A stretch of 53,170 nucleotides of DNA from a virus. This document shows positions 46,003-53,170 of the stretch, one piece after another (within the stretch, counting starts at the first letter, position 1; each line of letters opens with the position of its first letter). The stretch is from the IMG/VR virus record IMGVR_UViG_3300018429_000006, positions 1-53,170 of that record. One strand, 5' to 3'. Under the pieces are notes generated by a model, which worked only from the letters and a program-made list of their open reading frames with translations, was not told the DNA's origin and ran no database searches. A program made the translations under genes and the position numbers.

Positions 46003-46424
46003 AAATCGGAATCGACATTGGACGAGTACTAATGGGCGGCGAGGGAGAGGATACCGTCTTCAACGAGGAGAACTATCTGCTCACTCCGGAGGTTCCCGGA
46101 GCCTACAGAGCCGTAAGCAAGCTCGCTAAGCAGCGGCATGAGCTTCACATCATCTCCAAGTGTGGGGAAGTTGTCGAGGAGCGGTCCATGGATTGGCTGG
46201 ATGCTGAGGGATTCTTCTACCATATCCTCCCGCACCGTGTACACTTTGTCCGGAAACGCCCCTTGAAGGCTCCAATGGCGCAGGCTCTTGAGCTTGACAT
46301 CTTCATCGATGACCGCAAAGACATCATCGATTCTCTGCATGGAGTCGTCAAGTACCCGATCCTGTTCACGTCGTGGGAGCAGACCAACGCGGAACTGGTG
46401 AAGATCTTTGCTTCGAACGGGTGA
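45999..46424 (+). CDS. HAD-superfamily phosphatase-like protein
   Basis: This 141-residue protein has the HAD layout: motif I IGIDIGRVLM with the nucleophile Asp6, motif II HIISK, and motif IV FIDDRKDI (about 107-109). The second Asp of motif I, which normally acts as general acid/base, is Gly8, so hydrolysis may be weak or lost. It may be a nucleotidase or a 3'-phosphatase-like end-healing enzyme. It overlaps the previous gene by ATGA and shares 17 nt with the next small ORF. Confidence 0.65.
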   Translation: MKIGIDIGRVLMGGEGEDTVFNEENYLLTPEVPGAYRAVSKLAKQRHELHIISKCGEVVEERSMDWLDAEGFFYHILPHRVHFVRKRPLKAPMAQALELDIFIDDRKDIIDSLHGVVKYPILFTSWEQTNAELVKIFASNG

Positions 46425-46566
46425 TATAGTCAAGATCGTCTGCCCGAACAAGGGAGACAAGCTCGGTTTGATTTCTGACGTGGTAGATGATAGAATGGTA
46501 CTCATCGGAAAGAACTGGTTCGACCTCCAAGATTGCGAAGTAACTTTGCTTCACAGGGAGAGTTGA
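46408..46566 (+). CDS. 52-residue KOW/SH3-like small protein
   Basis: This short ORF starts at TTG 46408 inside the HAD gene (GGTGAAG upstream) and stops at 46564-46566. Its sequence (GDIVKIVCPNKGDKLGLIS then MVLIGKNWFDLQDCEVTLL) reads as one small beta barrel with KOW-like spacing of Gly residues. KOW-type domains often bind RNA or RNA polymerase; here that is inference. The stop codon overlaps the -35 box of the first Y RNA/tRNA promoter. Confidence 0.5.
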   Translation: MLRTGDIVKIVCPNKGDKLGLISDVVDDRMVLIGKNWFDLQDCEVTLLHRES

Positions 46567-46592
46567 CACGGACTCCGAGAACGTGGTATAAT
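46563..46592 (+). promoter_or_regulatory. Strong promoter for the first Y RNA and tRNA cluster
   Basis: TTGACA (46563-46568), 18-nt spacer ending GTGG, TATAAT (46587-46592). The predicted start, 7 nt downstream at 46599, is the first base of the Y RNA outer helix. Confidence 0.8.
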
Positions 46593-46598
46593 AGATGT

Positions 46599-46670
46599 AC
46601 ACGAAGCGCCAGTAAGAGTTACTCCCAAACTATTTATTTGATAAAACACTCTAACTACCATTTCTCGTGT
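46599..46670 (+). ncRNA. Y RNA candidate Y1 (72 nt)
   Basis: The outer helix is ACACGA (46599-46604) with TCGTGT (46665-46670), followed inside by AGCG on the 5' side and preceded by TTTC on the 3' side. The inner helix is AGAGT (46615-46619) with ACTCT (46648-46652), and a TACTCCC motif stands where the other copies have TACTTC. The loop is A/T-rich with no tRNA-like part. The CGAAG context at the helix end is the known Ro60-binding feature of Y RNAs. It starts at the predicted transcription start and ends 3 nt before tRNA-Trp. Confidence 0.65.
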
Positions 46671-46673
46671 CTT

Positions 46674-46746
46674 AGGTCAGTAGCGTAACGGCTAACGCAA
46701 CGCTCTCCAAAAGCGTAGATTGCAGGTTCGAATCCTGTCTGGCCTG
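46674..46746 (+). tRNA. tRNA-Trp (CCA)
   Basis: A full cloverleaf: acceptor AGGTCAG/CTGGCCT, D-arm GCGT/ACGC, anticodon loop CTCCAAA on an ACGCT/AGCGT stem, T-loop TTCGAAT, discriminator G. Confidence 0.92.
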
Positions 46747-46750
46747 CAAG

Positions 46751-46780
46751 TTTGCACAAACTATAAATGTGTGGTAGAAT
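46751..46780 (+). promoter_or_regulatory. Promoter candidate before tRNA-Pro
   Basis: TTTGCA (46751-46756), 18-nt spacer ending GTGG, TAGAAT (46775-46780). The architecture matches the stronger promoters of this region. Confidence 0.55.
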
Positions 46781-46794
46781 AGTAAGAACAATCC

Positions 46795-46868
46795 CGGTGT
46801 GTGGGAAAATTTGGTAATCCGCGTCGTTTGGGGCGATGAGAGTGCAGGTTCAAATCCTGTCACACCGA
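46795..46868 (+). tRNA. tRNA-Pro (TGG)
   Basis: Acceptor CGGTGTG/CACACCG, anticodon loop TTTGGGG, T-loop TTCAAAT, discriminator A. The next Y RNA candidate starts 2 nt downstream. Confidence 0.92.
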
Positions 46869-46870
46869 CT

Positions 46871-47044
46871 TTGACCGAAGCGATTGAAAAAGATACTTCA
46901 CATGAATGAATATGTCAGTATCGAGTCAGGGGAAACTCTGGCTCCTAGCGTAGGAACCTTCCTACTTGTTTTTCGTTTCACAATGTAGTACCCTTGTAAT
47001 ACCTAAGCAGTACCCAAACTCTTTTTCTGGTATTTCTCGGTCAA
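46871..47044 (+). ncRNA. Y RNA candidate Y2 (174 nt)
   Basis: The outer helix is 8 bp: TTGACCGA (46871-46878) with TCGGTCAA (47037-47044). Inside it are AGCG (5') and TTTC (3'). The inner helix is also 8 bp: GAAAAAGA (46886-46893) with TCTTTTTC (47020-47027), followed by TACTTC (46894-46899). The large interior forms its own hairpins (GATACT/AGTATC, GAGTCAG/CTGGCTC) but no D- or T-arm. A hairpin with a T-tract (46950-46973) inside it could end some transcripts early. It begins 2 nt after tRNA-Pro. Confidence 0.65.
46950..46973 (+). terminator. Possible internal terminator within Y2
   Basis: GTAGG / CCTAC with a 6-nt loop is followed by TTGTTTTT. The stem is short, so termination would be partial at most. 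Confidence 0.4.
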
Positions 47045-47050
47045 TAATTT

Positions 47051-47147
47051 TTGAAAGAAGTGTAGGACTCCGTTCCTTCGGTTAACGCAGCCCACAAGCT
47101 GCCAGCGGTTCAAACCCGCACATCGGGGTCCGTCTTTCCTCTTTCAA
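47051..47147 (+). ncRNA. Y RNA candidate Y3 (97 nt)
   Basis: Outer helix TTGAAAGA (47051-47058) with TCTTTCAA (47140-47147); inside it AGTG (5') and TTTCC (3'). Inner helix GGACTCCG (47065-47072) with CGGGGTCC (47124-47131), then TTCCTTC in place of TTACTTC. The interior has a GCAGC/GCTGC hairpin and a T-arm-like GCGG-TTCAAAC-CCGC. It superficially resembles a tRNA with GGACTCC/GGGGTCC as acceptor, but the T-arm and anticodon spacing do not fit. It ends 3 nt before tRNA-Gly. Confidence 0.6.
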
Positions 47148-47150
47148 TAT

Positions 47151-47223
47151 GCAGAAGTAACTCAGTTGGTAGAGTGCCTTCCTTCCAAGTAGGATGTCGC
47201 GAGTTCGAGTCTCGTCTTCTGCT
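47151..47223 (+). tRNA. tRNA-Gly (TCC)
   Basis: Acceptor GCAGAAG/CTTCTGC, anticodon loop CTTCCAA, T-loop TTCGAGT, discriminator T. The anticodon stem has one T-T mismatch (30-40). Confidence 0.9.
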
Positions 47224-47225
47224 CT

Positions 47226-47294
47226 ATTCTAGATGTGCAGTATCAAGTTACTTCATTTGGCGAAACAACACTTGACACATACGTTCCCTAGGAT
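47226..47294 (+). ncRNA. Y RNA candidate Y4 (69 nt)
   Basis: Outer helix ATTCTAG (47226-47232) with CTAGGAT (47288-47294, one T-G pair); internal TGTG (5') and GTTCC (3'). Inner helix TCAAG (47243-47247) with CTTGA (47271-47275), followed by TTACTTC (47248-47254). It is small like Y1, with no tRNA-like part. It begins 2 nt after tRNA-Gly and is the last RNA before the Ro60-like gene. The match to the consensus is looser than in Y1 and Y2. Confidence 0.5.
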
Positions 47295-47357
47295 CTCCGC
47301 TTTACCCTGTAATCAGACAACTGTCTGAATCGAAAATGACGAAAGGTATACAAAAAC

Positions 47358-48983
47358 ATGTCCAAGTTCAATACTGCCGCTGCACGATCACGTGCTGGCG
47401 TCGGACCAATCAAGTCCGAATCAACTTCCACTCTCAACACCTTCAACGGTGCTCAGGGCTTTGCCCGCGACTCCAAGTCCGAACTCTTCCTTGCCGCTGT
47501 CTCTGACTTCGGTGGAGAGGCAACCTTCTACGAGTCTGCTGACAACCGCACCAAGCGCATTGCCAAGCTGACCCATGAGGTCGCTGTACAGGACCCTGAG
47601 TGGATCACCAACTTCACCACATGGCTCCGCAACGAAGCCAACCTCCGTACCATCTCTCTGACCATTGCTCTTGAGGGTGCCAAGGCGCTCAACAAGGCTG
47701 GTGTTCCGGGTGGACGTACGCTGGTTGCCGGGTCGATCCGTCGTGCCGATGAGGCCGGTGAGGCTCTGGCCTACTGGATGGGCAACTTCGGTCGCAAGAT
47801 CCCTTCTGCTGTCAAGCGCGGTATCGCTGACGGGGCTGTCAAGTCCTTCAACGAATACTCCCTTGCCAAGTACGACACGTCGTCCCACGGCTTCCGTTTC
47901 GGTGACGTGATCGAACTGACTCACCCATCTCCTAAGGATGCCAAGCAGTCCGAACTCTTCAAGTTTGCCCTTGATCGTCGTCGTGACGCGTCCGCAGAGC
48001 CTTCCGAGTCTCTGACCATGCTTCAGGCTCGTAAGGAATTCCTTGCCCTGTCCCCTGCCGAAAAGCGCAAGCTTGTCGATTCGGGAGATGCTGTCATGGT
48101 TCTCGACAACGCTGGCCTCACGTGGGAAGTTCTCGGTTCCACTATCGAGGGCGGCATGGACGCCAAGGCGTGGGAAGCTGTGATCCCTTCAATGGGGTAT
48201 ATGGCGCTGCTGCGTAACCTCCGCAACTTCGAAGATAAGGGCGTCTCCAAGGTTGTCCTTGCTCAGGTTGCTGAGCGGATCTCCAACCCTGAAGAGGTTG
48301 CCAAGTCCCGCCAGCTTCCGTTCCGCTTCCTGTCGGCCTACAACGCGAACTCCGGTTCGCTGCGTTGGGGATTCCCGCTTGAAGAGGCTCTGAACGCGTC
48401 TCTGGCTAACGTTCCTTCTCTGGATGACACCCTTATCCTCGTGGACCGTTCCGGCTCCATGTTCATGACGCGTTCCAAGAACACGGACCTGACTAGCGCG
48501 GACTCCGCTGCTATCTTCGGTACTGCCTTGGCTCTCCGTGGTAACCGCAACACGCTGGTACAGTTCGGATCTACTTCCTCTGAGATCACTCTCAAGAAGA
48601 CGGACTCCGTTCTGAAGACGCTGGAGAAGTTTAGCGCCCTTGGTGGTACGGCGACGTACGACGCCATTGTGAAGCACTTCAAGCCGGGAGTCCACAAGCG
48701 TGTTGTCCTCGTCACTGACGAACAGGCAAACGGGTTCTACCACCGTCTGAATGGCAGGAACGCGAGCTACTGGGACGGTTACGACCGTGTACAGGGCAAC
48801 GTTCTCGACGCACTCCCTTCAAACGTCCCTACCTACACGTGGAACCTTGAAGGCTACACTGCCGGTCAGGGTGAGTCCAAGCCAAACCGCACGTACCTCG
48901 GCGGACTGTCCGATCAGGCTTTCAAGCTGATCCCTCTCGTAGAAGCGGGCTATGACGCTGGCTGGCCTTGGGAAACCAAGTGA
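47358..48983 (+). CDS. Ro60/TROVE-domain RNA-binding protein
   Basis: This 541-residue protein matches Ro60 (bacterial Rsr). The N-terminal 330 residues form a helical-repeat TROVE ring (FARDSKSELFLAAVSDFGGE, LRNEANLRTISLTIALE, IPSMGYMALLRNLRNFEDKG). The C-terminal von Willebrand A domain has a complete MIDAS: D363-x-S365-x-S367 (DRSGS), T431 and D454. Ro60 holds misfolded RNA ends in its central hole and Y RNAs on its outer surface, and can link them to PNPase or other RNases. Its surroundings, seven Y RNA candidates and many tRNAs, fit this exactly. The site AAAGG precedes the ATG at a long spacing. A 24-residue ORF overlaps its stop. Confidence 0.92.
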   Translation: MSKFNTAAARSRAGVGPIKSESTSTLNTFNGAQGFARDSKSELFLAAVSDFGGEATFYESADNRTKRIAKLTHEVAVQDPEWITNFTTWLRNEANLRTISLTIALEGAKALNKAGVPGGRTLVAGSIRRADEAGEALAYWMGNFGRKIPSAVKRGIADGAVKSFNEYSLAKYDTSSHGFRFGDVIELTHPSPKDAKQSELFKFALDRRRDASAEPSESLTMLQARKEFLALSPAEKRKLVDSGDAVMVLDNAGLTWEVLGSTIEGGMDAKAWEAVIPSMGYMALLRNLRNFEDKGVSKVVLAQVAERISNPEEVAKSRQLPFRFLSAYNANSGSLRWGFPLEEALNASLANVPSLDDTLILVDRSGSMFMTRSKNTDLTSADSAAIFGTALALRGNRNTLVQFGSTSSEITLKKTDSVLKTLEKFSALGGTATYDAIVKHFKPGVHKRVVLVTDEQANGFYHRLNGRNASYWDGYDRVQGNVLDALPSNVPTYTWNLEGYTAGQGESKPNRTYLGGLSDQAFKLIPLVEAGYDAGWPWETK

Positions 48984-49054
48984 GCATAGCTCTGCTTCTC
49001 TTCGGCTTCTTCCTAGCTTTGCTGGGTTGGGGCAAGCTACCTGAAAACTGGTAG
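48980..49054 (+). CDS. 24-residue membrane peptide coupled to the Ro60-like gene
   Basis: GTG 48980 overlaps the Ro60-like stop as GTGA. The peptide (MSIALLLFGFFLALLGWGKL then PENW) is a single hydrophobic helix with a short polar end. Overlap-type coupling and the clear membrane-helix composition favour a real gene, but length alone makes it uncertain. I know of no relative. Confidence 0.35.
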   Translation: MSIALLLFGFFLALLGWGKLPENW

Positions 49055-49062
49055 CCCATGCT

Positions 49063-49096
49063 ACACTCCGGAAGTTGACACCAGCTTCCGGAGTGT
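49063..49096. repeat. Perfect 12-bp inverted repeat around a -35 box
   Basis: ACACTCCGGAAG (49063-49074) and CTTCCGGAGTGT (49085-49096) flank a 10-nt spacer that starts with TTGACA. It could be an operator, or a terminator stem for the Ro60-like transcript without a T-tract. Confidence 0.75.
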
Positions 49097-49104
49097 GGTA
49101 TAAT
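49075..49104 (+). promoter_or_regulatory. Strong promo­ter for the second Y RNA and tRNA cluster
   Basis: TTGACA (49075-49080), 18-nt spacer ending GTGG, TATAAT (49099-49104). The start of transcription at about 49111 coincides with the outer helix of Y5. Confidence 0.8.
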
Positions 49105-49109
49105 AGAAT

Positions 49110-49235
49110 TACTGAAGCGCTAGAGATGAGTTACTTCCTCATATGAAAAAGTTCTGGGTTCGAGTCCCAGTCACGGTCCTTGGCCGTGGTAGATTAATTG
49201 GCAAATCAAACACTCGTCTCATCCATTTCTCAGTA
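49110..49235 (+). ncRNA. Y RNA candidate Y5, tRNA-mimicking (126 nt)
   Basis: Outer helix TACTGA (49110-49115) with TCAGTA (49230-49235); AGCG inside on the 5' side, TTTC on the 3' side. Inner helix GATGAG with CTCATC, then TTACTTC. The interior is a permuted tRNA-like unit: T-arm CTGGG-TTCGAGT-CCCAG, acceptor-like 3' strand TCACGGT, a short turn, acceptor-like 5' strand GCCGTGG, TA, then D-arm GATT-AATTGGCA-AATC. This is the YrlA type of bacterial Y RNA, in which the Ro-binding helix takes the place of the anticodon arm. It ends 3 nt before tRNA-Thr. Confidence 0.75.
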
Positions 49236-49238
49236 TAT

Positions 49239-49311
49239 GCTTCCTTAGCTCAGATGGTAGAGCACCTGTCTTGTAAACAGGATGTCGCCGGTTCGACCCC
49301 GGCAGGAAGCT
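49239..49311 (+). tRNA. tRNA-Thr (TGT)
   Basis: Acceptor GCTTCCT/AGGAAGC, D-arm GCTC/GAGC, anticodon loop CTTGTAA on CCTGT/ACAGG, T-loop TTCGACC, discriminator T. Confidence 0.95.
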
Positions 49312-49315
49312 CGTA

Positions 49316-49467
49316 GTTCAGATGTGATTGACTCCTGTTACTTCTATTGCACAGAAAGTATGTCGGTTCAAGTCCGGCTGCGTCTCTCCTTGCCGTTGGT
49401 GAGGTTCGAGACGTATGATGTAATTGGCTAACACTTATAAACACAGGAATCGCCTAGTTCTCTGGAC
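49316..49467 (+). ncRNA. Y RNA candidate Y6, tRNA-mimicking (152 nt)
   Basis: Outer helix GTTCAGA (49316-49322) with TCTGGAC (49461-49467); TGTG inside on the 5' side, GTTC on the 3' side. Inner helix TCCTGT (49333-49338) with ACAGGA (49443-49448), then TACTTC. The tRNA-like unit has a T-arm GTCGG-TTCAAGT-CCGGC (49362-49378), acceptor-like TGCGTCT (49379-49385) pairing with AGACGTA (49409-49415) across a 23-nt loop, and a D-arm-like TGT-AATTGGCTA-ACA. The order is permuted relative to tRNA. It begins 4 nt after tRNA-Thr. Confidence 0.7.
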
Positions 49468-49476
49468 AACTAATTT

Positions 49477-49617
49477 CATATCGAAGCGCAGTAACGGGAT
49501 ACTTCAATGGAAACCCTAGGTCGTAGGTTCAAATCCTGCTCCCCCGACTCATCGGGGGGATAGCTCAGTCTGGTAGAGCGAGAGTAAATAGCACCCGGTA
49601 CGTCCTTTCTCGATATG
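49477..49617 (+). ncRNA. Y RNA candidate Y7, tRNA-mimicking (141 nt)
   Basis: Outer helix CATATCGA (49477-49484) with TCGATATG (49610-49617); AGCG (5') and TTTC (3') inside. A short inner helix CGGG/CCCG is followed by TACTTC. The tRNA-like unit has T-arm GTAGG-TTCAAAT-CCTGC (49523-49539), acceptor-like TCCCCCG (49540-49546), a 6-nt turn, CGGGGGG (49553-49559) with one extra G, and a canonical D-arm GCTC-AGTCTGGTA-GAGC. A tRNA finder may report pieces of this as a broken tRNA. It lies 5 nt before tRNA-Phe. Confidence 0.75.
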
Positions 49618-49622
49618 AGTAT

Positions 49623-49696
49623 GGCACCTTAGCTCAGTAGGACAGAGCGCTAGATTGAAACCCTAGAGGTCATCGGTTCGAATCCGATAGGTGCCA
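49623..49696 (+). tRNA. tRNA-Phe (GAA)
   Basis: Acceptor GGCACCT/AGGTGCC, anticodon GAA, T-loop TTCGAAT, discriminator A. The anticodon stem has an A31-C39 mismatch. Confidence 0.92.
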
Positions 49697-49697
49697 C

Positions 49698-49768
49698 TCC
49701 CCTGTAGTGTAACGGCAGCACTAGAGATTTTGGCTCTCTCAGCCTAGGTTCGAATCCCAGTGGGGGAT
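49698..49768 (+). tRNA. tRNA-Gln (TTG)
   Basis: Acceptor TCCCCTG/TGGGGGA, anticodon loop TTTTGGC on AGAGA/TCTCT, T-loop TTCGAAT with an A51-C63 mismatch in the T-stem. It starts 1 nt after tRNA-Phe. Confidence 0.9.
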
Positions 49769-49769
49769 C

Positions 49770-49780
49770 TATGGTATAAT
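49770..49780 (+). promoter_or_regulatory. Extended -10 promoter (TATGGTATAAT)
   Basis: TATAAT at 49775-49780 lies directly after tRNA-Gln. Any -35 element would be inside the tRNA gene. It serves the small gene at 49813. Confidence 0.5.
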
Positions 49781-49812
49781 GATAGAGTTACGTAACAACA
49801 CTAGGAGTAAAA

Positions 49813-49989
49813 ATGGCTAATCCAGCTACCAACAAGGTGTCAGAAGACACTCTCTTCACCCAGCAGGGCGCTCTTCCAACAGAGGTGTCCGAAAACGAAC
49901 GCATCAACATTCAGGACCTGTCCACAGGCGAAGTTGAAGCTACTGAGAACTCGGAAAACAAGCGTATTGCGACCGTAGTCTACCCGTAA
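49813..49989 (+). CDS. 58-residue polar protein
   Basis: ATG 49813 has a good CTAGGAG site and the ORF ends at TAA 49987-49989, followed by a strong terminator, so it is a complete transcription unit with its own promoter. The protein is hydrophilic and acidic, with no hydrophobic core (MANPATNKVSEDTLFTQQ, then ENERINIQDLSTGEVEATEN). The function is unknown; it may be disordered. Confidence 0.6.
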   Translation: MANPATNKVSEDTLFTQQGALPTEVSENERINIQDLSTGEVEATENSENKRIATVVYP

Positions 49990-50002
49990 TCTTACCGATT
50001 GA

Positions 50003-50037
50003 GGGGCCGACTACCACATGTAGTCGGCCCCTTTTTT
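50003..50037 (+). terminator. Strong Rho-independent terminator
   Basis: A perfect 12-bp stem GGGGCCGACTAC / GTAGTCGGCCCC (loop CACAT) is followed by TTTTTT. Confidence 0.95.
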
Positions 50038-50040
50038 CAT

Positions 50041-50112
50041 TCCGATGTAGGGTAATGGTATCCCGTCTGATTCTGGATCAGGAGATTCTAGGTTCGAGTC
50101 CTAGCGTCGGAG
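50041..50112 (+). tRNA. tRNA-Gln (CTG)
   Basis: Acceptor TCCGATG/CGTCGGA, anticodon loop TTCTGGA, T-arm CTAGG-TTCGAGT-CCTAG, discriminator G. It starts 3 nt after the T-run of the terminator, so read-through or an unseen promoter must supply it. Confidence 0.92.
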
Positions 50113-50124
50113 CGCAGTAATAAG

Positions 50125-50197
50125 GGTCGCTTAGCTCAGCAGGTAGAGCGCCACTCTGATAAGGTGGATGTCGTGGGTTCAAGTCCCACAGTGGCCA
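50125..50197 (+). tRNA. tRNA-Ile (GAT)
   Basis: Acceptor GGTCGCT/AGTGGCC, D-arm GCTC/GAGC, anticodon loop CTGATAA, T-arm GTGGG-TTCAAGT-CCCAC, discriminator A. Confidence 0.93.
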
Positions 50198-50227
50198 CGC
50201 AATATCTCAACGACGAAAGGAAACACA

Positions 50228-50413
50228 ATGGACGCACTTGGTCTCGTACTAGCAGTTGTAGTTGGAGTTTTCTTTCTAGCTGTGGTATCGTTTATAGTGT
50301 TCGTGGCAGTACAGGTCTTCAAGATCCGACGACGCATCAAGAAAAATCAGACTGATTTTGATCGACGCTTCGTCAAGGACTTTGACCGCAAGCCACCACG
50401 TTCATATAAGTAG
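50228..50413 (+). CDS. Small single-pass membrane protein
   Basis: ATG 50228 with an AAAGGA site gives 61 residues. Residues 3-31 are one long hydrophobic helix (LGLVLAVVVGVFFLAVVSFI...), followed by a strongly basic C-terminal half (KIRRRIKKNQ, DRRFVKDFDRK). By the positive-inside rule the tail is cytoplasmic. It might be holin-like or a membrane tether, but no family is recognised. Confidence 0.65.
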   Translation: MDALGLVLAVVVGVFFLAVVSFIVFVAVQVFKIRRRIKKNQTDFDRRFVKDFDRKPPRSYK

Positions 50414-50431
50414 TATTAGTAGTGTAATTTA

Positions 50432-50503
50432 GCCCTCATCGTATAGTGGTAAATATCTCGGACCTTCACTCCGAAGACTGGAGTTCGAATCCCCATGGGG
50501 GTA
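50432..50503 (+). tRNA. tRNA-Glu (TTC)
   Basis: Acceptor GCCCTCA/TGGGGGT, anticodon stem TCGGA/TCCGA, loop CCTTCAC. Position 33 is C instead of the near-universal T, and the T-stem has an A52-C62 mismatch. Confidence 0.88.
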
Positions 50504-50521
50504 CGCATAGGAAGTGGAAAG

Positions 50522-51148
50522 ATGACCGTAGGTGTTTACGCGTTCTTCGATCAGGACGGTAACTGCCTCTACGTAGGACAGTCCGGTGATATCGAGGGAC
50601 GGCACAAGCAACACATTAATCAACTCCGTGGAGGCTATCATAGACGATCAGACTTCAATGAATGGTTTTCTTCTCACGGAGAATCCAAGTTGTCGTTCAA
50701 GTTGCTGGAGAAATGTTCCAATGATGTTGACTCTAGGAATTACCTAGAGATCGAGTATTTTAACCAACTAAACCCCATGTTCTATGGCCAAATCCCCTCC
50801 ATGAGTAATAGATTTGAGCACTCAGATGAGACTCGTACTCGGATCGCTGAGTCAGTTAGAAAACGTCTGGAAGATCTAGGAGTGTATGAAACTCGGAAAT
50901 GTCCTTGTGGAAGCGAATTTACAGCCTTGGTAAGGAGAACGACTAAGTACTGCTCTAGAAAATGTGTAGTGGATGACCGAAAATCCGTTCTCGACTGCAC
51001 CACTGTTTATGATCTGTATATGTCTGGTTTGACACTTACCCAAGTAGGAGATATACTTGGAGTAAGCTACAGAACAGTCCATAGCTTCATGGTAAAGCAC
51101 AACATACCTAGACGAGCTAGTGGACCGAAAGCAAATTTGCCCCTATAG
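50522..51148 (+). CDS. GIY-YIG homing endonuclease
   Basis: ATG 50522 (GGAAGTGGAAAG upstream) gives 208 residues. The GIY-YIG nuclease domain is N-terminal: VGVYAFFD (GVY 4-6), CLYVGQSGDIEGRHKQH (YVG 17-19, R27) and LEIEYFNQLNP with the catalytic Glu. A Cys4-type finger (CPCGSEF then YCSRKC, about 130-150) and a C-terminal helix-turn-helix (LTLTQVGDILGVSYRTVHSF) provide DNA binding, as in SegA-like enzymes. It lies between two tRNA-Glu genes, and its stop codon lies inside the second one, marking a recent or tightly fitted insertion. Confidence 0.85.
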   Translation: MTVGVYAFFDQDGNCLYVGQSGDIEGRHKQHINQLRGGYHRRSDFNEWFSSHGESKLSFKLLEKCSNDVDSRNYLEIEYFNQLNPMFYGQIPSMSNRFEHSDETRTRIAESVRKRLEDLGVYETRKCPCGSEFTALVRRTTKYCSRKCVVDDRKSVLDCTTVYDLYMSGLTLTQVGDILGVSYRTVHSFMVKHNIPRRASGPKANLPL

Positions 51149-51209
51149 TATATTGGCAGTACGACAGATTCTCAATCTGTTAGGACGGGATCGATACCCG
51201 TTAGGGGTA
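51139..51209 (+). tRNA. tRNA-Glu (CTC)
   Basis: Acceptor GCCCCTA/TAGGGGT, anticodon loop TTCTCAA on ACAGA/TCTGT. The T-loop is ATCGATA, with A in place of T54. The first 10 nt overlap the endonuclease gene. Confidence 0.88.
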
Positions 51210-51211
51210 CT

Positions 51212-51279
51212 GAATGTCTGGGAAGGAACCGGAAAACCGATACAGTCTTAGGATCGGCGCGACGGGAGTTCAGACATTC
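51212..51279 (+). ncRNA. tRNA-like RNA of unknown type, copy 1
   Basis: A 9-bp terminal helix GAATGTCTG / CAGACATTC encloses GAACCGGAAAACC, a hairpin CCGAT/ATCGG with an 11-nt loop, and GCGACGGGAGTTC, which looks like a truncated T-arm. It cannot fold as a normal tRNA. It lies 2 nt after tRNA-Glu and 3 nt before tRNA-Ser, so it should be excised with them. A related element is at 52989-53074. Confidence 0.45.
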
Positions 51280-51282
51280 TCT

Positions 51283-51368
51283 GGAAGGTCCAGCCGAGGG
51301 ATGGCGACGGCAACTGATTTGAAACCAGTTTGGGGAAACCCGTAGGAGTTCGATCCTCCTACCTTCCG
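51283..51368 (+). tRNA. tRNA-Ser (TGA)
   Basis: Type II tRNA with acceptor GGAAGGT/ACCTTCC, anticodon TGA, long variable arm, T-arm AGGAG-TTCGATC-CTCCT, discriminator G. The anticodon stem has an A31-C39 mismatch. Confidence 0.92.
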
Positions 51369-51441
51369 CTCGTGTTGGTCGAAATTCGCGTAATCGACTA
51401 GGGTAGCAACCTGTGTATGTGCACTCTCACAAATAGCTTAT

Positions 51442-51524
51442 GGAGAGTAACCCTGTGAGGTTCAGGTCACGCTTGGAAAGCGTGTAGTGGTGAAAGCCAT
51501 GGGATTCGAGTTCTCTGCTCTCCG
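51442..51524 (+). tRNA. tRNA-Ser (GGA)
   Basis: Type II tRNA with acceptor GGAGAGT/GCTCTCC, anticodon loop TTGGAAA on CACGC/GCGTG, variable arm GTGGTGAAAGCCA, T-loop TTCGAGT, discriminator G. An upstream ACTCTC (51423-51428) can pair with its 5' strand and could compete with folding. Confidence 0.88.
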
Positions 51525-51530
51525 CTTGAG

Positions 51531-51559
51531 TTGTACATCGTCACATACTTTGATAGACT
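51531..51559 (+). promoter_or_regulatory. Promoter candidate (TTGTAC-17-TAGACT) for the ligase gene
   Basis: TTGTAC (51531-51536) and TAGACT (51554-51559) at 17-nt spacing would start transcription about 30 nt before the ligase ATG. Confidence 0.45.
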
Positions 51560-51596
51560 GTGAATGTACTCAACCAATACAAAGAAAAGGGTAGAC

Positions 51597-52559
51597 ATGT
51601 TTATCGAACCAATGCTGGCGTCCACGACTCCTGAGAAGAAGCGTGCCACGCTGTCAGACAAGACCGGCTACGTGCTGGAACCAAAGCACGACGGTATGCG
51701 GGCCATCATCTCCAAGCACAACGGAGAGGTCAAGATCTACAGCCGTGTCGGTCTGGAGTATCAGGAACACCTTCCGGCTCTTGTCGAACAGGCCAGCAAG
51801 CTTCTCGATGGAACTGTCATCGATGGTGAACTCATGGTCGTCAAGTCGTGGGAAGTCATCAATGGTCGTCCGGTAGCTGTAGCAAACTTCAACCAGACCA
51901 TGCGGATCATGGGTTCCGGCCCGGAGAAGGCAATCGCCCGTCAGGAACAGCACGAGATTGAGTTCTGTGCTTTTGACCTGATCAAGCTCGATGGTCGCTC
52001 GATGGAAGGCAGCACGTACCTAACCCGTACCACTGCCTTGTCAGTGGTTCTGGAAAAGCTGAATGCCCCGTCCATCTTCAAGAACGCGATCATCGATCAG
52101 TGGGATGATTCCGTGATCGATGAACTATGGGAAGCTGGTATTGAGGGCGCGATCCTGAAGCAGATTGGCTCCGAGTACATTGCTGGCAAGCGACGTGCAA
52201 ACACTTGGTACAAGGTCAAGGCCGAACTCACCGCTGATGTGGTCCTCATGGGCTTCACGGACGCCAAGGAAGGCAAGACAGGCAAATGGCTGGGAAAGGT
52301 AGGGGCACTAGTTTTCGGTGCCTACAATGACCAGCAGGAGCTTGTGGAGGTCGGCCAGTGCTCGGGCATGAACGACGCAGAGCGTGACCGTTGGACCGCA
52401 ATCCGCGACTCGGGAGACACGTCCGAACGAGTCATCGAAGTGAAGTACAATGATCTGGTTGGTTCCGGTACGTTCGGAACACCACGCCATCCTCAGTTCA
52501 AGATCGAGCGGATCGACAAGAACCCCGCTGACTGCACCATGGAGCAATTCAAGCTGTAG
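51597..52559 (+). CDS. ATP-dependent DNA ligase
   Basis: ATG 51597 with an AAAAGGG site is preferred to the in-frame ATG 51564. The 320-residue protein has the nucleotidyltransferase motifs: motif I EPKHDGMRA with the adenylated Lys30, motif III-like EFCAFDLIKLDG, motif IV EGAILKQ and motif V WYKVKAE. A C-terminal OB domain follows (VVLMGFTDAKEG...). It seals nicks with ATP. Length and motifs fit compact phage ligases. It lies alone among the tRNAs, away from the other replication genes. Confidence 0.92.
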   Translation: MFIEPMLASTTPEKKRATLSDKTGYVLEPKHDGMRAIISKHNGEVKIYSRVGLEYQEHLPALVEQASKLLDGTVIDGELMVVKSWEVINGRPVAVANFNQTMRIMGSGPEKAIARQEQHEIEFCAFDLIKLDGRSMEGSTYLTRTTALSVVLEKLNAPSIFKNAIIDQWDDSVIDELWEAGIEGAILKQIGSEYIAGKRRANTWYKVKAELTADVVLMGFTDAKEGKTGKWLGKVGALVFGAYNDQQELVEVGQCSGMNDAERDRWTAIRDSGDTSERVIEVKYNDLVGSGTFGTPRHPQFKIERIDKNPADCTMEQFKL

Positions 52560-52589
52560 TTGACGCCGCCCCTCAAAAGGTGGTATAAT
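52560..52589 (+). promoter_or_regulatory. Strong promoter for the third tRNA cluster
   Basis: TTGACG (52560-52565), 18-nt spacer ending GTGG, TATAAT (52584-52589). It starts at the last base of the ligase stop codon. Confidence 0.8.
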
Positions 52590-52637
52590 AGTAATAACGT
52601 ATCAGGTAGACAGTTCGGGATCTGTTAAAATCCCTTC

Positions 52638-52710
52638 GGTTCTTTAGCTCAGTTGGTAGAGCGCCAGTTTTACATACTGGATGTCGTCAGTTCGACCCTG
52701 ACAGGAACCA
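52638..52710 (+). tRNA. tRNA-Val (TAC)
   Basis: Acceptor GGTTCTT/AGGAACC, D-arm GCTC/GAGC, anticodon loop TTTACAT on CCAGT/ACTGG, T-arm GTCAG-TTCGACC-CTGAC, discriminator A. A small GGGAT/ATCCC hairpin precedes it. Confidence 0.95.
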
Positions 52711-52736
52711 CTGGAGGTCGTTACGGCATCCAACTT

Positions 52737-52819
52737 GCTCTCGTGGTGGAATGGCAGACACGCCGGTCTCAAAATCCGGTGCCTTGAAAAGCGTGTGGGT
52801 TCAAGTCCCACCGGGAGTA
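52737..52819 (+). tRNA. tRNA-Leu (CAA)
   Basis: Type II tRNA with acceptor GCTCTCG/CGGGAGT, anticodon CAA on a CCGG/CCGG stem (T31-T39 mismatch), variable arm, T-arm GTGGG-TTCAAGT-CCCAC, discriminator A. Confidence 0.9.
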
Positions 52820-52827
52820 CGTAACAA

Positions 52828-52900
52828 TGGGCCATAGCTCAGCGGGTAGAGCACCGAACTCATAATTCGAGGGTCGCGGGTTCAAGTCCCGCTGGCCCAA
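52828..52900 (+). tRNA. tRNA-Met (CAT)
   Basis: Acceptor TGGGCCA/TGGCCCA, anticodon loop CTCATAA, T-arm GCGGG-TTCAAGT-CCCGC, discriminator A. The first pair of the anticodon stem is C27-A43. It may be elongator Met or a lysidine-modified Ile tRNA; sequence alone does not tell. Confidence 0.9.
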
Positions 52901-52913
52901 CGCAACACAATAC

Positions 52914-52986
52914 GCCTTTATAGCTCAGCGGATAGAGCGACGGATTACGAATCCGTAGGTCGGGGGTTCGAATCCCTCTAAGGGCA
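52914..52986 (+). tRNA. tRNA-Arg (ACG)
   Basis: Acceptor GCCTTTA/TAAGGGC, D-arm GCTC/GAGC, anticodon loop TTACGAA on ACGGA/TCCGT, T-loop TTCGAAT, discriminator A. A34 would need TadA deamination to read CGC. Confidence 0.95.
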
Positions 52987-52988
52987 CT

Positions 52989-53074
52989 GAAACAGGGGCG
53001 GTCAATTGAAAACCCTGAGGCTCATTAAGGGTCCGACATTGCGAACGGAATCCTCTAGTACCTAGCCCTGTTTC
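52989..53074 (+). ncRNA. tRNA-like RNA of unknown type, copy 2
   Basis: A 9-bp terminal helix GAAACAGGG / CCCTGTTTC encloses TTGAAAACC, a hairpin CCCT/AGGG with an 11-nt loop, and GCGAACGGAATCC, in the same order as the element at 51212-51279. It lies 2 nt after tRNA-Arg and 3 nt before tRNA-Ser. Confidence 0.45.
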
Positions 53075-53077
53075 TTT

Positions 53078-53162
53078 GGAACCGTGTCCGAGAGGCCTAT
53101 GGTACAACTTTGCTAAAGTTGTGTGGGTAACACCACCGAGAGTTCGAATCTCTCCGGTTCCG
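53078..53162 (+). tRNA. tRNA-Ser (GCT)
   Basis: Type II tRNA with acceptor GGAACCG/CGGTTCC, anticodon loop TTGCTAA on CAACT/AGTTG, variable arm, T-arm GAGAG-TTCGAAT-CTCTC, discriminator G. Confidence 0.95.
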
Positions 53163-53170
53163 CATGGATA

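What the first reader, a model, noticed from the sequence alone, without database searches (positions are those of the whole stretch)
49110..49617. Three Y RNA candidates carry circularly permuted tRNA-like domains
Seen: in 49110-49235, 49316-49467 and 49477-49617 a canonical T-arm comes first, then the 3' acceptor-like strand, a turn, the complementary 5' acceptor-like strand and a D-arm with GG in its loop. The acceptor pairs are TCACGGT/GCCGTGG, TGCGTCT/AGACGTA and TCCCCCG/CGGGGGG (one extra G). Known: YrlA-type bacterial Y RNAs mimic tRNA in this permuted order. Inference: each is a different mimic, perhaps of a different tRNA, which could attract tRNA-modifying or tRNA-binding proteins to the Ro RNP.
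Basis: partly seen in the sequence, partly recalled or inferred. Interest (0 to 1): 0.85.

Follow-up and report, generated by a model that had tools for sequence, protein, structure and literature searches.

The report
Phage Y RNA array between tRNAs
Next to its own gene for a Ro-type RNA-binding protein, this phage appears to carry about seven small Y RNA genes packed between its tRNA genes; three of them imitate a tRNA in a rearranged order, a known trick found here in an unusually large and mixed set.

Summary
All three segments have a T-arm, 3' acceptor strand, turn, 5' acceptor strand and D-arm with GG, inside a terminal stem shared with other Y RNAs near Ro genes. The Ro/TROVE gene is at 47358-48983. 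Relatives keep 7/7 acceptor pairs in 12 of 12 modules of slots g2-g4 although sequences differ. The isotype inference fails: Y modules resemble the phage's own tRNAs no more (33.1) than real tRNAs resemble a different isotype (32.8).

The window has seven Y RNA candidates (46597-49617): three with the permuted domain, one with a T-arm only, two short, one long. Five related genomes have 6-7 each, against 0-5 in 36 other Ro-bearing phage loci and 0-3 in 80 Streptomycetaceae loci. They lie 0-8 nt from neighbouring tRNAs or Y RNAs at 44 junctions. Two consensus promoters sit directly before a Y RNA. Two related phages without Ro keep the tRNAs but show no Y RNA.

Permuted tRNA mimicry in phage Y RNAs is already published; the tRNA-interleaved seven-member array looks like a new variant. 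Function is inferred.

The parts
46563..46592 (+). promoter 1, TTGACA-18-TATAAT with TG before the -10, ends 4 nt before g0
   Evidence: 12 of 12 consensus bases; similar site before g0 in all five clade genomes
46597..46672 (+). Y RNA candidate g0, short, no tRNA-like domain; 1 nt before tRNA-Trp
   Evidence: stem signature; training row of model R1; covariation of its group
46871..47044 (+). Y RNA candidate gA, long (174 nt), no tRNA-like domain
   Evidence: stem signature; fold z -3.45; mean column identity 86% in five relatives; R1 only E 0.19
47051..47147 (+). Y RNA candidate gB, T-arm only
   Evidence: stem signature; fold z -3.43; R1 E 0.021 with filters off
47226..47294 (+). Y RNA candidate gC, short
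   Evidence: stem signature; training row of R1; fold z only -0.86
47358..48983 (+). Ro/TROVE protein gene, 541 aa, with VWA domain
   Evidence: Pfam TROVE 9.3e-19, VWA_2 5e-6; 69% identical to Atuin Ro-like protein; PDB TROVE chains 4.6e-30
49075..49104 (+). promoter 2, TTGACA-18-TATAAT with TG before the -10, ends 3 nt before g1
   Evidence: 12 of 12 consensus bases; similar site before g1 in all five clade genomes
49108..49237 (+).
   Evidence: R1 45.5 bits, E 9.9e-9, not in training
49315..49468 (+). Y RNA candidate g2 (segment 2), permuted tRNA-like type with a hairpin in the acceptor turn: T-arm 49362-49378, acceptor 3' 49379-49385, acceptor 5' 49409-49415, weak D-arm 49419-49433
   Evidence: acceptor covaries in 5 of 5 orthologues; not found by R1 in the window
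49477..49617 (+). Y RNA candidate g3 (segment 3), permuted tRNA-like type: T-arm 49523-49539, acceptor 3' 49540-49546, acceptor 5' 49553-49559, D-arm 49563-49579
   Evidence: partial Rfam YrlA match 35.7 bits; orthologues found by R1
49239..49312 (+). tRNA-Thr(TGT) between g1 and g2
49623..49697 (+). tRNA-Phe(GAA) after g3

Best explanation
The three segments are tRNA-like (YrlA-type) members of a set of seven Y RNAs that serve the phage's own Ro protein. The set is transcribed, at least in part, from two strong sigma-70-type promoters as transcripts that alternate Y RNAs and tRNAs; cutting at tRNA ends would release the Y RNAs (inferred). The terminal stem binds Ro (inferred from the conserved signature and co-occurrence with Ro). 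The permuted T-arm/acceptor/D-arm module folds into a tRNA-like elbow that serves as a handle for host proteins: TruB and Dus-type enzymes, and a tether to host PNPase as in RYPER (by analogy). The short, T-arm-only and long Y RNAs lack the full handle, so the phage would make Ro RNPs of several compositions that tune RNA decay or quality control in the infected cell (inferred). Shown: anatomy, covariation, co-occurrence with Ro, packing against tRNAs, promoter motifs. Not shown: expression, Ro binding, modification, PNPase contact.
For: Permuted domain in all three. Acceptor own partners 7/7 in 13 of 13 listed modules, swapped partners 4.1 of 7. Stem covariation 0.758 against 0.225 in shuffles. 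Model R1, trained on short Y RNAs only, finds tRNA-like ones (L003 g1 3.7e-9, window g1 9.9e-9, L001 g2 1.8e-5). In 29 of 37 other phage Ro loci and 62 of 80 bacterial Ro loci R1 matches, always upstream of Ro. Talia1610 and Mimi: same tRNA order, no TROVE, no R1 match genome-wide, gaps closed. Junctions of 0-8 nt in 44 of 44 listed cases. Two perfect promoters.
Against: Rfam YrlA is far below its cut-off (35.7 and 24.5 against 69 bits), and adjacent tRNAs give false matches of 19-26 bits. R1 does not find the window's g2 and g3. Segment 2 has a weak D-arm; g3 and gC have poor fold z-scores. L003 g1 has a shortened acceptor and L132 g1 an irregular one. No expression or binding data. No PNPase-type domain in nine phage records, so a tether would need the host's.
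Confidence: 0.7

Rival explanations
1. Each Y RNA mimics a particular tRNA isotype to capture isotype-specific proteins.
For: The three acceptors and D-arms differ; slot g3 is closest to tRNA-Pro in 3 of 4 own-genome comparisons.
Against: Mean best score 33.1 (n = 13) equals the 32.8 that real tRNAs reach against another isotype (n = 84). Slot g2 has no consistent isotype among orthologues. There is no anticodon arm and no free 3' end.
Confidence: 0.07
2. The phage Ro and Y RNAs form an RNA repair or anti-nuclease module that protects or replaces tRNAs cleaved by host defence; the tRNA-like domain competes for the nuclease.
For: Placement in the tRNA array. Salmonella rsr-yrlBA-rtcBA is an RNA repair operon, and YrlA is suggested there as a possible competitive inhibitor of the nuclease (PMC7790460, passages). 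RNA_ligase PF09414 occurs in 6 of 9 records.
Against: The RNA ligase does not track Ro: present in both Ro-less phages, not found in complete Ro-bearing Atuin. RtcB in 0 of 9. The modules lack an anticodon arm, the usual target of anticodon nucleases.
Confidence: 0.15
3. The segments are permuted or decayed tRNA genes, or chance tRNA look-alikes in a tRNA array.
For: Neighbouring tRNAs do give acceptor pairings of 6/7 or better in 24 of 267 cases and weak descriptor hits in Ro-less arrays.
Against: Shared Ro-linked terminal stem with covariation, conserved slots in relatives, absence from Ro-less relatives; no anticodon arm, and ARAGORN and Rfam call no tRNA there in the window.
Confidence: 0.04

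Closest known systems
YrlA-type bacterial Y RNA (Rfam RF02553; Salmonella, Mycobacterium smegmatis)
   Same: Beside a Ro gene; long terminal stem; tRNA-like domain with T-arm, acceptor and D-arm in permuted order (features of YrlA as given in PMC8394870, passages; the permuted order is partly recalled).
   Different: Below Rfam's cut-off; three tRNA-like copies plus four other Y RNA candidates for one Ro; packed between tRNA genes; one copy has a hairpin in the acceptor turn.
Salmonella rsr-yrlBA-rtcBA
   Same: One Ro gene with more than one Y RNA in one locus (PMC7790460, passages).
   Different: Seven candidates instead of two; no RtcB found; tRNA array instead of a repair operon.
Phage Ro/Y RNA loci in the collections (Streptomyces, Gordonia and Arthrobacter phages)
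   Same: Ro gene with 0-5 Y RNA motifs, mostly upstream and often in a tRNA array.
   Different: The window's clade has 6-7, on both sides of Ro, with tRNAs between them.
RYPER (Deinococcus radiodurans Rsr-Y RNA-PNPase)
   Same: Candidate working model: a Y RNA tethers Ro to PNPase (PMC8394870 and PMC4726728, passages).
   Different: PNPase would have to come from the host; not tested.

Membership tests
Bacterial Y RNA with tRNA-like domain (YrlA type) | encoded near a Ro/TROVE gene | tested here: met
   Ro at 47358-48983; Y RNA candidates absent from two Ro-less relatives
Bacterial Y RNA with tRNA-like domain (YrlA type) | terminal stem joining 5' and 3' ends, with the conserved Ro-side signature | tested here: met
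   R1 matches (not for the window's g2 and g3)
Bacterial Y RNA with tRNA-like domain (YrlA type) | T-arm, acceptor and D-arm in permuted order | tested here: met
   segment 2 has a weak D-arm
Bacterial Y RNA with tRNA-like domain (YrlA type) | binding to Ro | not testable with these tools
   none
Bacterial Y RNA with tRNA-like domain (YrlA type) | dihydrouridine and pseudouridine from tRNA enzymes | not testable with these tools
   T-loop TTCRA in all three; GG in the D-loop region of 48 of 50 phage modules (the descriptor favours GG)
Rfam RF02553 YrlA | score at or above the curated cut-off of 69 bits | tested here: not met
   best 35.7 bits, partial; no YrlA match at E <= 0.001 in L001-L004, 43.7 bits in L005
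Isotype-specific tRNA mimic | closer to one tRNA isotype than unrelated tRNAs are to each other | tested here: not met
   33.1 against 32.8
Permuted tRNA gene | anticodon arm formed by the two halves | tested here: not met
   the place of the anticodon arm is taken by the Ro-type stem; no tRNA called there by ARAGORN or Rfam
RYPER component | tethering of PNPase | not testable with these tools
   no phage-encoded RNase PH domain in 9 records; host unknown

The most novel reading that the evidence does not exclude
A phage makes a repertoire of Ro RNPs from one Ro and six to seven Y RNAs cut out of mixed tRNA/Y RNA transcripts by the tRNA-maturation machinery. The tRNA-like module is exchangeable: the orthologous slot g1 carries the permuted module in some phages (window, L003, L132), only a T-arm in L004 and none in Atuin and L002. 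The balance of handle-bearing and handle-less Y RNAs would set how much Ro is tied to host PNPase or tRNA-binding enzymes.
Probability: 0.4. Interest if true: 0.65.

Novelty: new variant of a known kind. Interest (0 to 1): 0.5.

Why it matters
Why one Ro should have several Y RNAs is not settled in the passages I read. Here is a compact natural set, with orthologous slots that gained or lost the tRNA-like module and close relatives that lack Ro and show no Y RNA. Deleting single Y RNAs in a cultivated relative such as Arthrobacter phage Atuin would test directly what the tRNA-like module adds. The array also suggests tRNA processing as a way to mature Y RNAs. Practically, some annotated phage 'tRNAs' next to Ro genes appear to be Y RNAs.

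Tried and rejected
Isotype mimicry: compared 13 clade modules with the tRNAs of their own genomes and 25 listed modules with 286 phage tRNAs; rejected as a general rule.

Permuted or decayed tRNA genes: rejected (no anticodon arm).

Rfam as proof: scores are too low, and neighbouring tRNAs give false YrlA matches of 19-26 bits. The control search also rings weakly in 13 of 14 unrelated genomes.

Descriptor scan alone as proof: six hits occur in two Ro-less tRNA-array regions.

RNA repair module: RNA ligase does not track Ro, RtcB not found.

The strict stem scan missed g0 and g1 in the window; a relaxed rule (TTACTCC allowed, 6 of 8 pairs) found them. R1 did not find the window copies of g2 and g3. 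Two Y counts for the 80 bacterial loci differ slightly with the rule: 0/1/2/3 in 10/50/12/8 and 12/52/7/9. My automatic classifier called L003 g1, L132 g1 (T-arm only), L004 g2 and L004 gB (nothing) differently from my reading by eye. One search reported no Y modules because a variable was overwritten in my script; corrected. RNAalifold on 34 mixed modules did not recover the acceptor, whose columns MAFFT had not kept in register. One search, a two-row alignment, was of no use.

Full report
WHAT IS THERE. The window is a 53,170-base virus record. It carries phage-type replication genes (DNA polymerase A, helicase, ThyX, ribonucleotide reductase) and 16 tRNA genes from 46674 to 53163. A 541-residue Ro/TROVE protein with a VWA domain lies at 47358-48983. 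The nearest annotated relative is Arthrobacter phage Atuin, whose Ro is 69% identical and whose tRNA order around Ro is the same.

THE THREE SEGMENTS. Each has, in order, a T-arm with TTCRA loop, a 3' acceptor strand, a turn, the complementary 5' acceptor strand and a D-arm with GG. All three acceptors are 7/7 paired. Segment 2 has a hairpin in the turn and a weak, 3-bp D-stem. Minimum-energy folds of the domain show all three arms for segments 1 and 3, and T-arm plus acceptor for segment 2. In 500 shuffles the descriptor gave one hit of 29 or more. Real tRNA arrays are a harder control: 24 of 267 listed tRNA neighbours have acceptor strands that pair at 6/7 or better, and the regions of two Ro-less phages give six hits. 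I therefore did not rely on the descriptor.

THE TERMINAL STEM. All three share a signature, GA-WGYG-N(7-13)-TACTTC, on the 5' side and a pyrimidine-rich 3' strand that closes on a terminal helix. The same signature reveals four more Y RNA candidates in the window: g0 46597-46672 (short), gA 46871-47044 (long), gB 47051-47147 (T-arm only) and gC 47226-47294 (short). The strict version of the rule gave 26 hits in 40 shuffled windows, both strands, about 0.65 per window; in the real window it found five of the seven, all between 46871 and 49617 on the + strand, and nothing else. The relaxed rule, applied to 46300-49700, found all seven.

COVARIATION. On 11 short Y RNAs (slots g0, gC and short g1) the two stem helices have 93.5% of cells paired, 10 of 14 pairs with changes on both sides, and a covariation score of 0.758 against 0.225 in shuffles and at most 0.156 when slid. 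These rows were collected with a rule asking for 6 of 8 terminal pairs, which favours helix 1; helix 2 was not part of the rule and has 6 of 8 pairs with two-sided change. A covariance model (R1) built from these rows alone finds Y RNAs with tRNA-like domains that were not in it: L003 g1 (3.7e-9), window g1 (9.9e-9), L003, L001 and L002 g3 (2.4e-7 to 6.9e-6) and L001 g2 (1.8e-5). It does not find the window's g2 and g3, and finds the window's gA only at E 0.19. With filters off the window's g1 scored only 19.0 bits, over a shorter stretch. For the acceptor, own partners pair 7/7 in 13 of 13 listed modules (slots g2 5, g3 4, g4 3, g1 1), swapped partners on average 4.1 of 7 (n = 156). Slots were defined by the terminal stem, not by the acceptor. 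Two further g1 modules, L003 (shortened acceptor) and L132 (irregular), were not in that count.

LINK TO Ro. In 37 other Ro-bearing phage loci R1 gives 43 matches at E <= 1 in 29 of 37, all within 1 kb upstream of Ro on its strand. One of these loci, L007, is a fragment of the same clade and contributed a training row. In 80 Streptomyces/Kitasatospora Ro loci (the best 80 of 361 found) it gives 63 matches in 62 of 80, all upstream of Ro. The sharpest test is natural: Arthrobacter phages Talia1610 and Mimi have the same tRNA order there but no TROVE protein in the whole genome. They have no R1 match at E <= 0.01 in the whole genome and none at E <= 10 in the region. Their gaps are shorter: Pro-Gly 68 and 67 nt (114-305 in five Ro-bearing genomes), Gly-Thr 49 (1882-2014, including Ro), Thr-Phe 4 (296-437). 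Ro and the Y RNAs thus come or go together at several places in the array.

ARRAY ARCHITECTURE. Five genomes (window, Atuin, L002, L003, L004) have 7, 6, 7, 7 and 7 candidates in eight orthologous slots; L132 and L007 are fragments of the same clade with five and four. By one motif count, per Ro locus: clade 6-7 (n = 5); 26 other viral contigs 0-4; 10 annotated Streptomyces/Gordonia phages 0-5; 80 bacteria 0-3; the minus-strand control is mostly 0. The motif comes from this clade, so counts elsewhere are lower bounds. Junctions with a neighbouring tRNA or Y RNA are 0-8 nt in all 44 listed cases; the list takes gaps under 150 nt and so leaves out the interval that holds Ro. Perfect TTGACA-18-TATAAT promoters end 4 nt before g0 and 3 nt before g1, with similar sites in all five genomes. 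Slot g1 has the permuted module in the window and L003, a T-arm only in L004, and no tRNA-like part in Atuin and L002; L132 has an irregular module there.

DIFFERENT tRNAs? Comparing acceptor, D-arm and T-arm, Y modules score 33.1 on average against the best tRNA of their own genome (n = 13); real tRNAs of these genomes score 32.8 against the best tRNA of another isotype (n = 84). Slot g3 leans to tRNA-Pro, within background. Isotype mimicry is not supported as a rule. The test is blunt: these parts name the right isotype for 193 of 286 real tRNAs.

MECHANISM. Most likely the phage Ro is loaded with several Y RNAs cut from tRNA/Y RNA transcripts. Those with the tRNA-like module would bring tRNA-binding or modifying host proteins, or host PNPase, to Ro; those without would gate Ro only. 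That YrlA is a substrate of DusA and TruB, and that the tRNA-like domain binds PNPase, is from a review passage (PMC8394870); the Deinococcus tether is also in PMC4726728 (passages). No PNPase-type domain was found in nine phage records. RNA ligase is present in 6 of 9 and does not follow Ro; RtcB is in 0 of 9.

WHAT IS KNOWN. Y RNAs with tRNA-like domains are established, including in phages: PMC12282133 (passages) says they were identified in mycobacteriophages and suspects them in a Listeria phage; PMC7765460 (passages) says phages are reported to have YrlA; PMC7824862 (passage) notes TROVE proteins in jumbo phages. The primary paper, Chen et al. 2014 (RNA 20:1715), could not be read; from recall it reports likely Y RNAs near Ro in more than 250 bacterial and phage species. 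I found no description of a seven-member array between tRNAs in the listings of eight library searches, but that library lacks the main papers. The segments therefore have the features of YrlA-type Y RNAs (below Rfam's cut-off, Ro binding untested); the array organisation looks like a new variant.

Noticed in passing
L040:2269-2343, L043:2274-2347, L046:2204-2275, L047:2245-2335: Annotated tRNAs just upstream of Ro (GiJojo tRNA-Arg, LuckySocke tRNA-Ser, VanLee tRNA-Arg, Frankenweenie tRNA-Pro) overlap permuted tRNA-like modules found by the descriptor. Rfam lists no tRNA at that place in L040 (the others were not tested). They are probably misannotated Y RNAs.
   Followed up: partly
window 46871-47044 and orthologues in L002, L003, L004, L007, L132: The long Y RNA candidate gA has no tRNA-like part but a strongly conserved body (86% mean column identity, fold z -3.45). 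What its extra hairpins do is unexplained.
   Followed up: partly
window 50495-51148: A GIY-YIG endonuclease-like ORF sits between two tRNA-Glu genes (Pfam 6.9e-10), possibly a homing endonuclease in the array.
   Followed up: no
window 49813-50033: A 58-codon ORF followed by a strong terminator-like hairpin (50001-50033) lies between two tRNA-Gln genes; Talia1610 and Mimi have a small annotated CDS in the same interval.
   Followed up: no
window 52828-52901, minus strand: Rfam family Plastid-ycf2 (RF04354) matches the antisense of tRNA-Met above its cut-off and other tRNAs below it. This looks like a database artefact.
   Followed up: no
L041:4579-4742: A near-threshold manA RNA match (49.7 against 55.2 bits) between two tRNA-Lys genes of Streptomyces phage BRock.
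   Followed up: no
L048:1729-2481: In Streptomyces phage Kela an annotated RNA ligase lies directly upstream of Ro.
   Followed up: no
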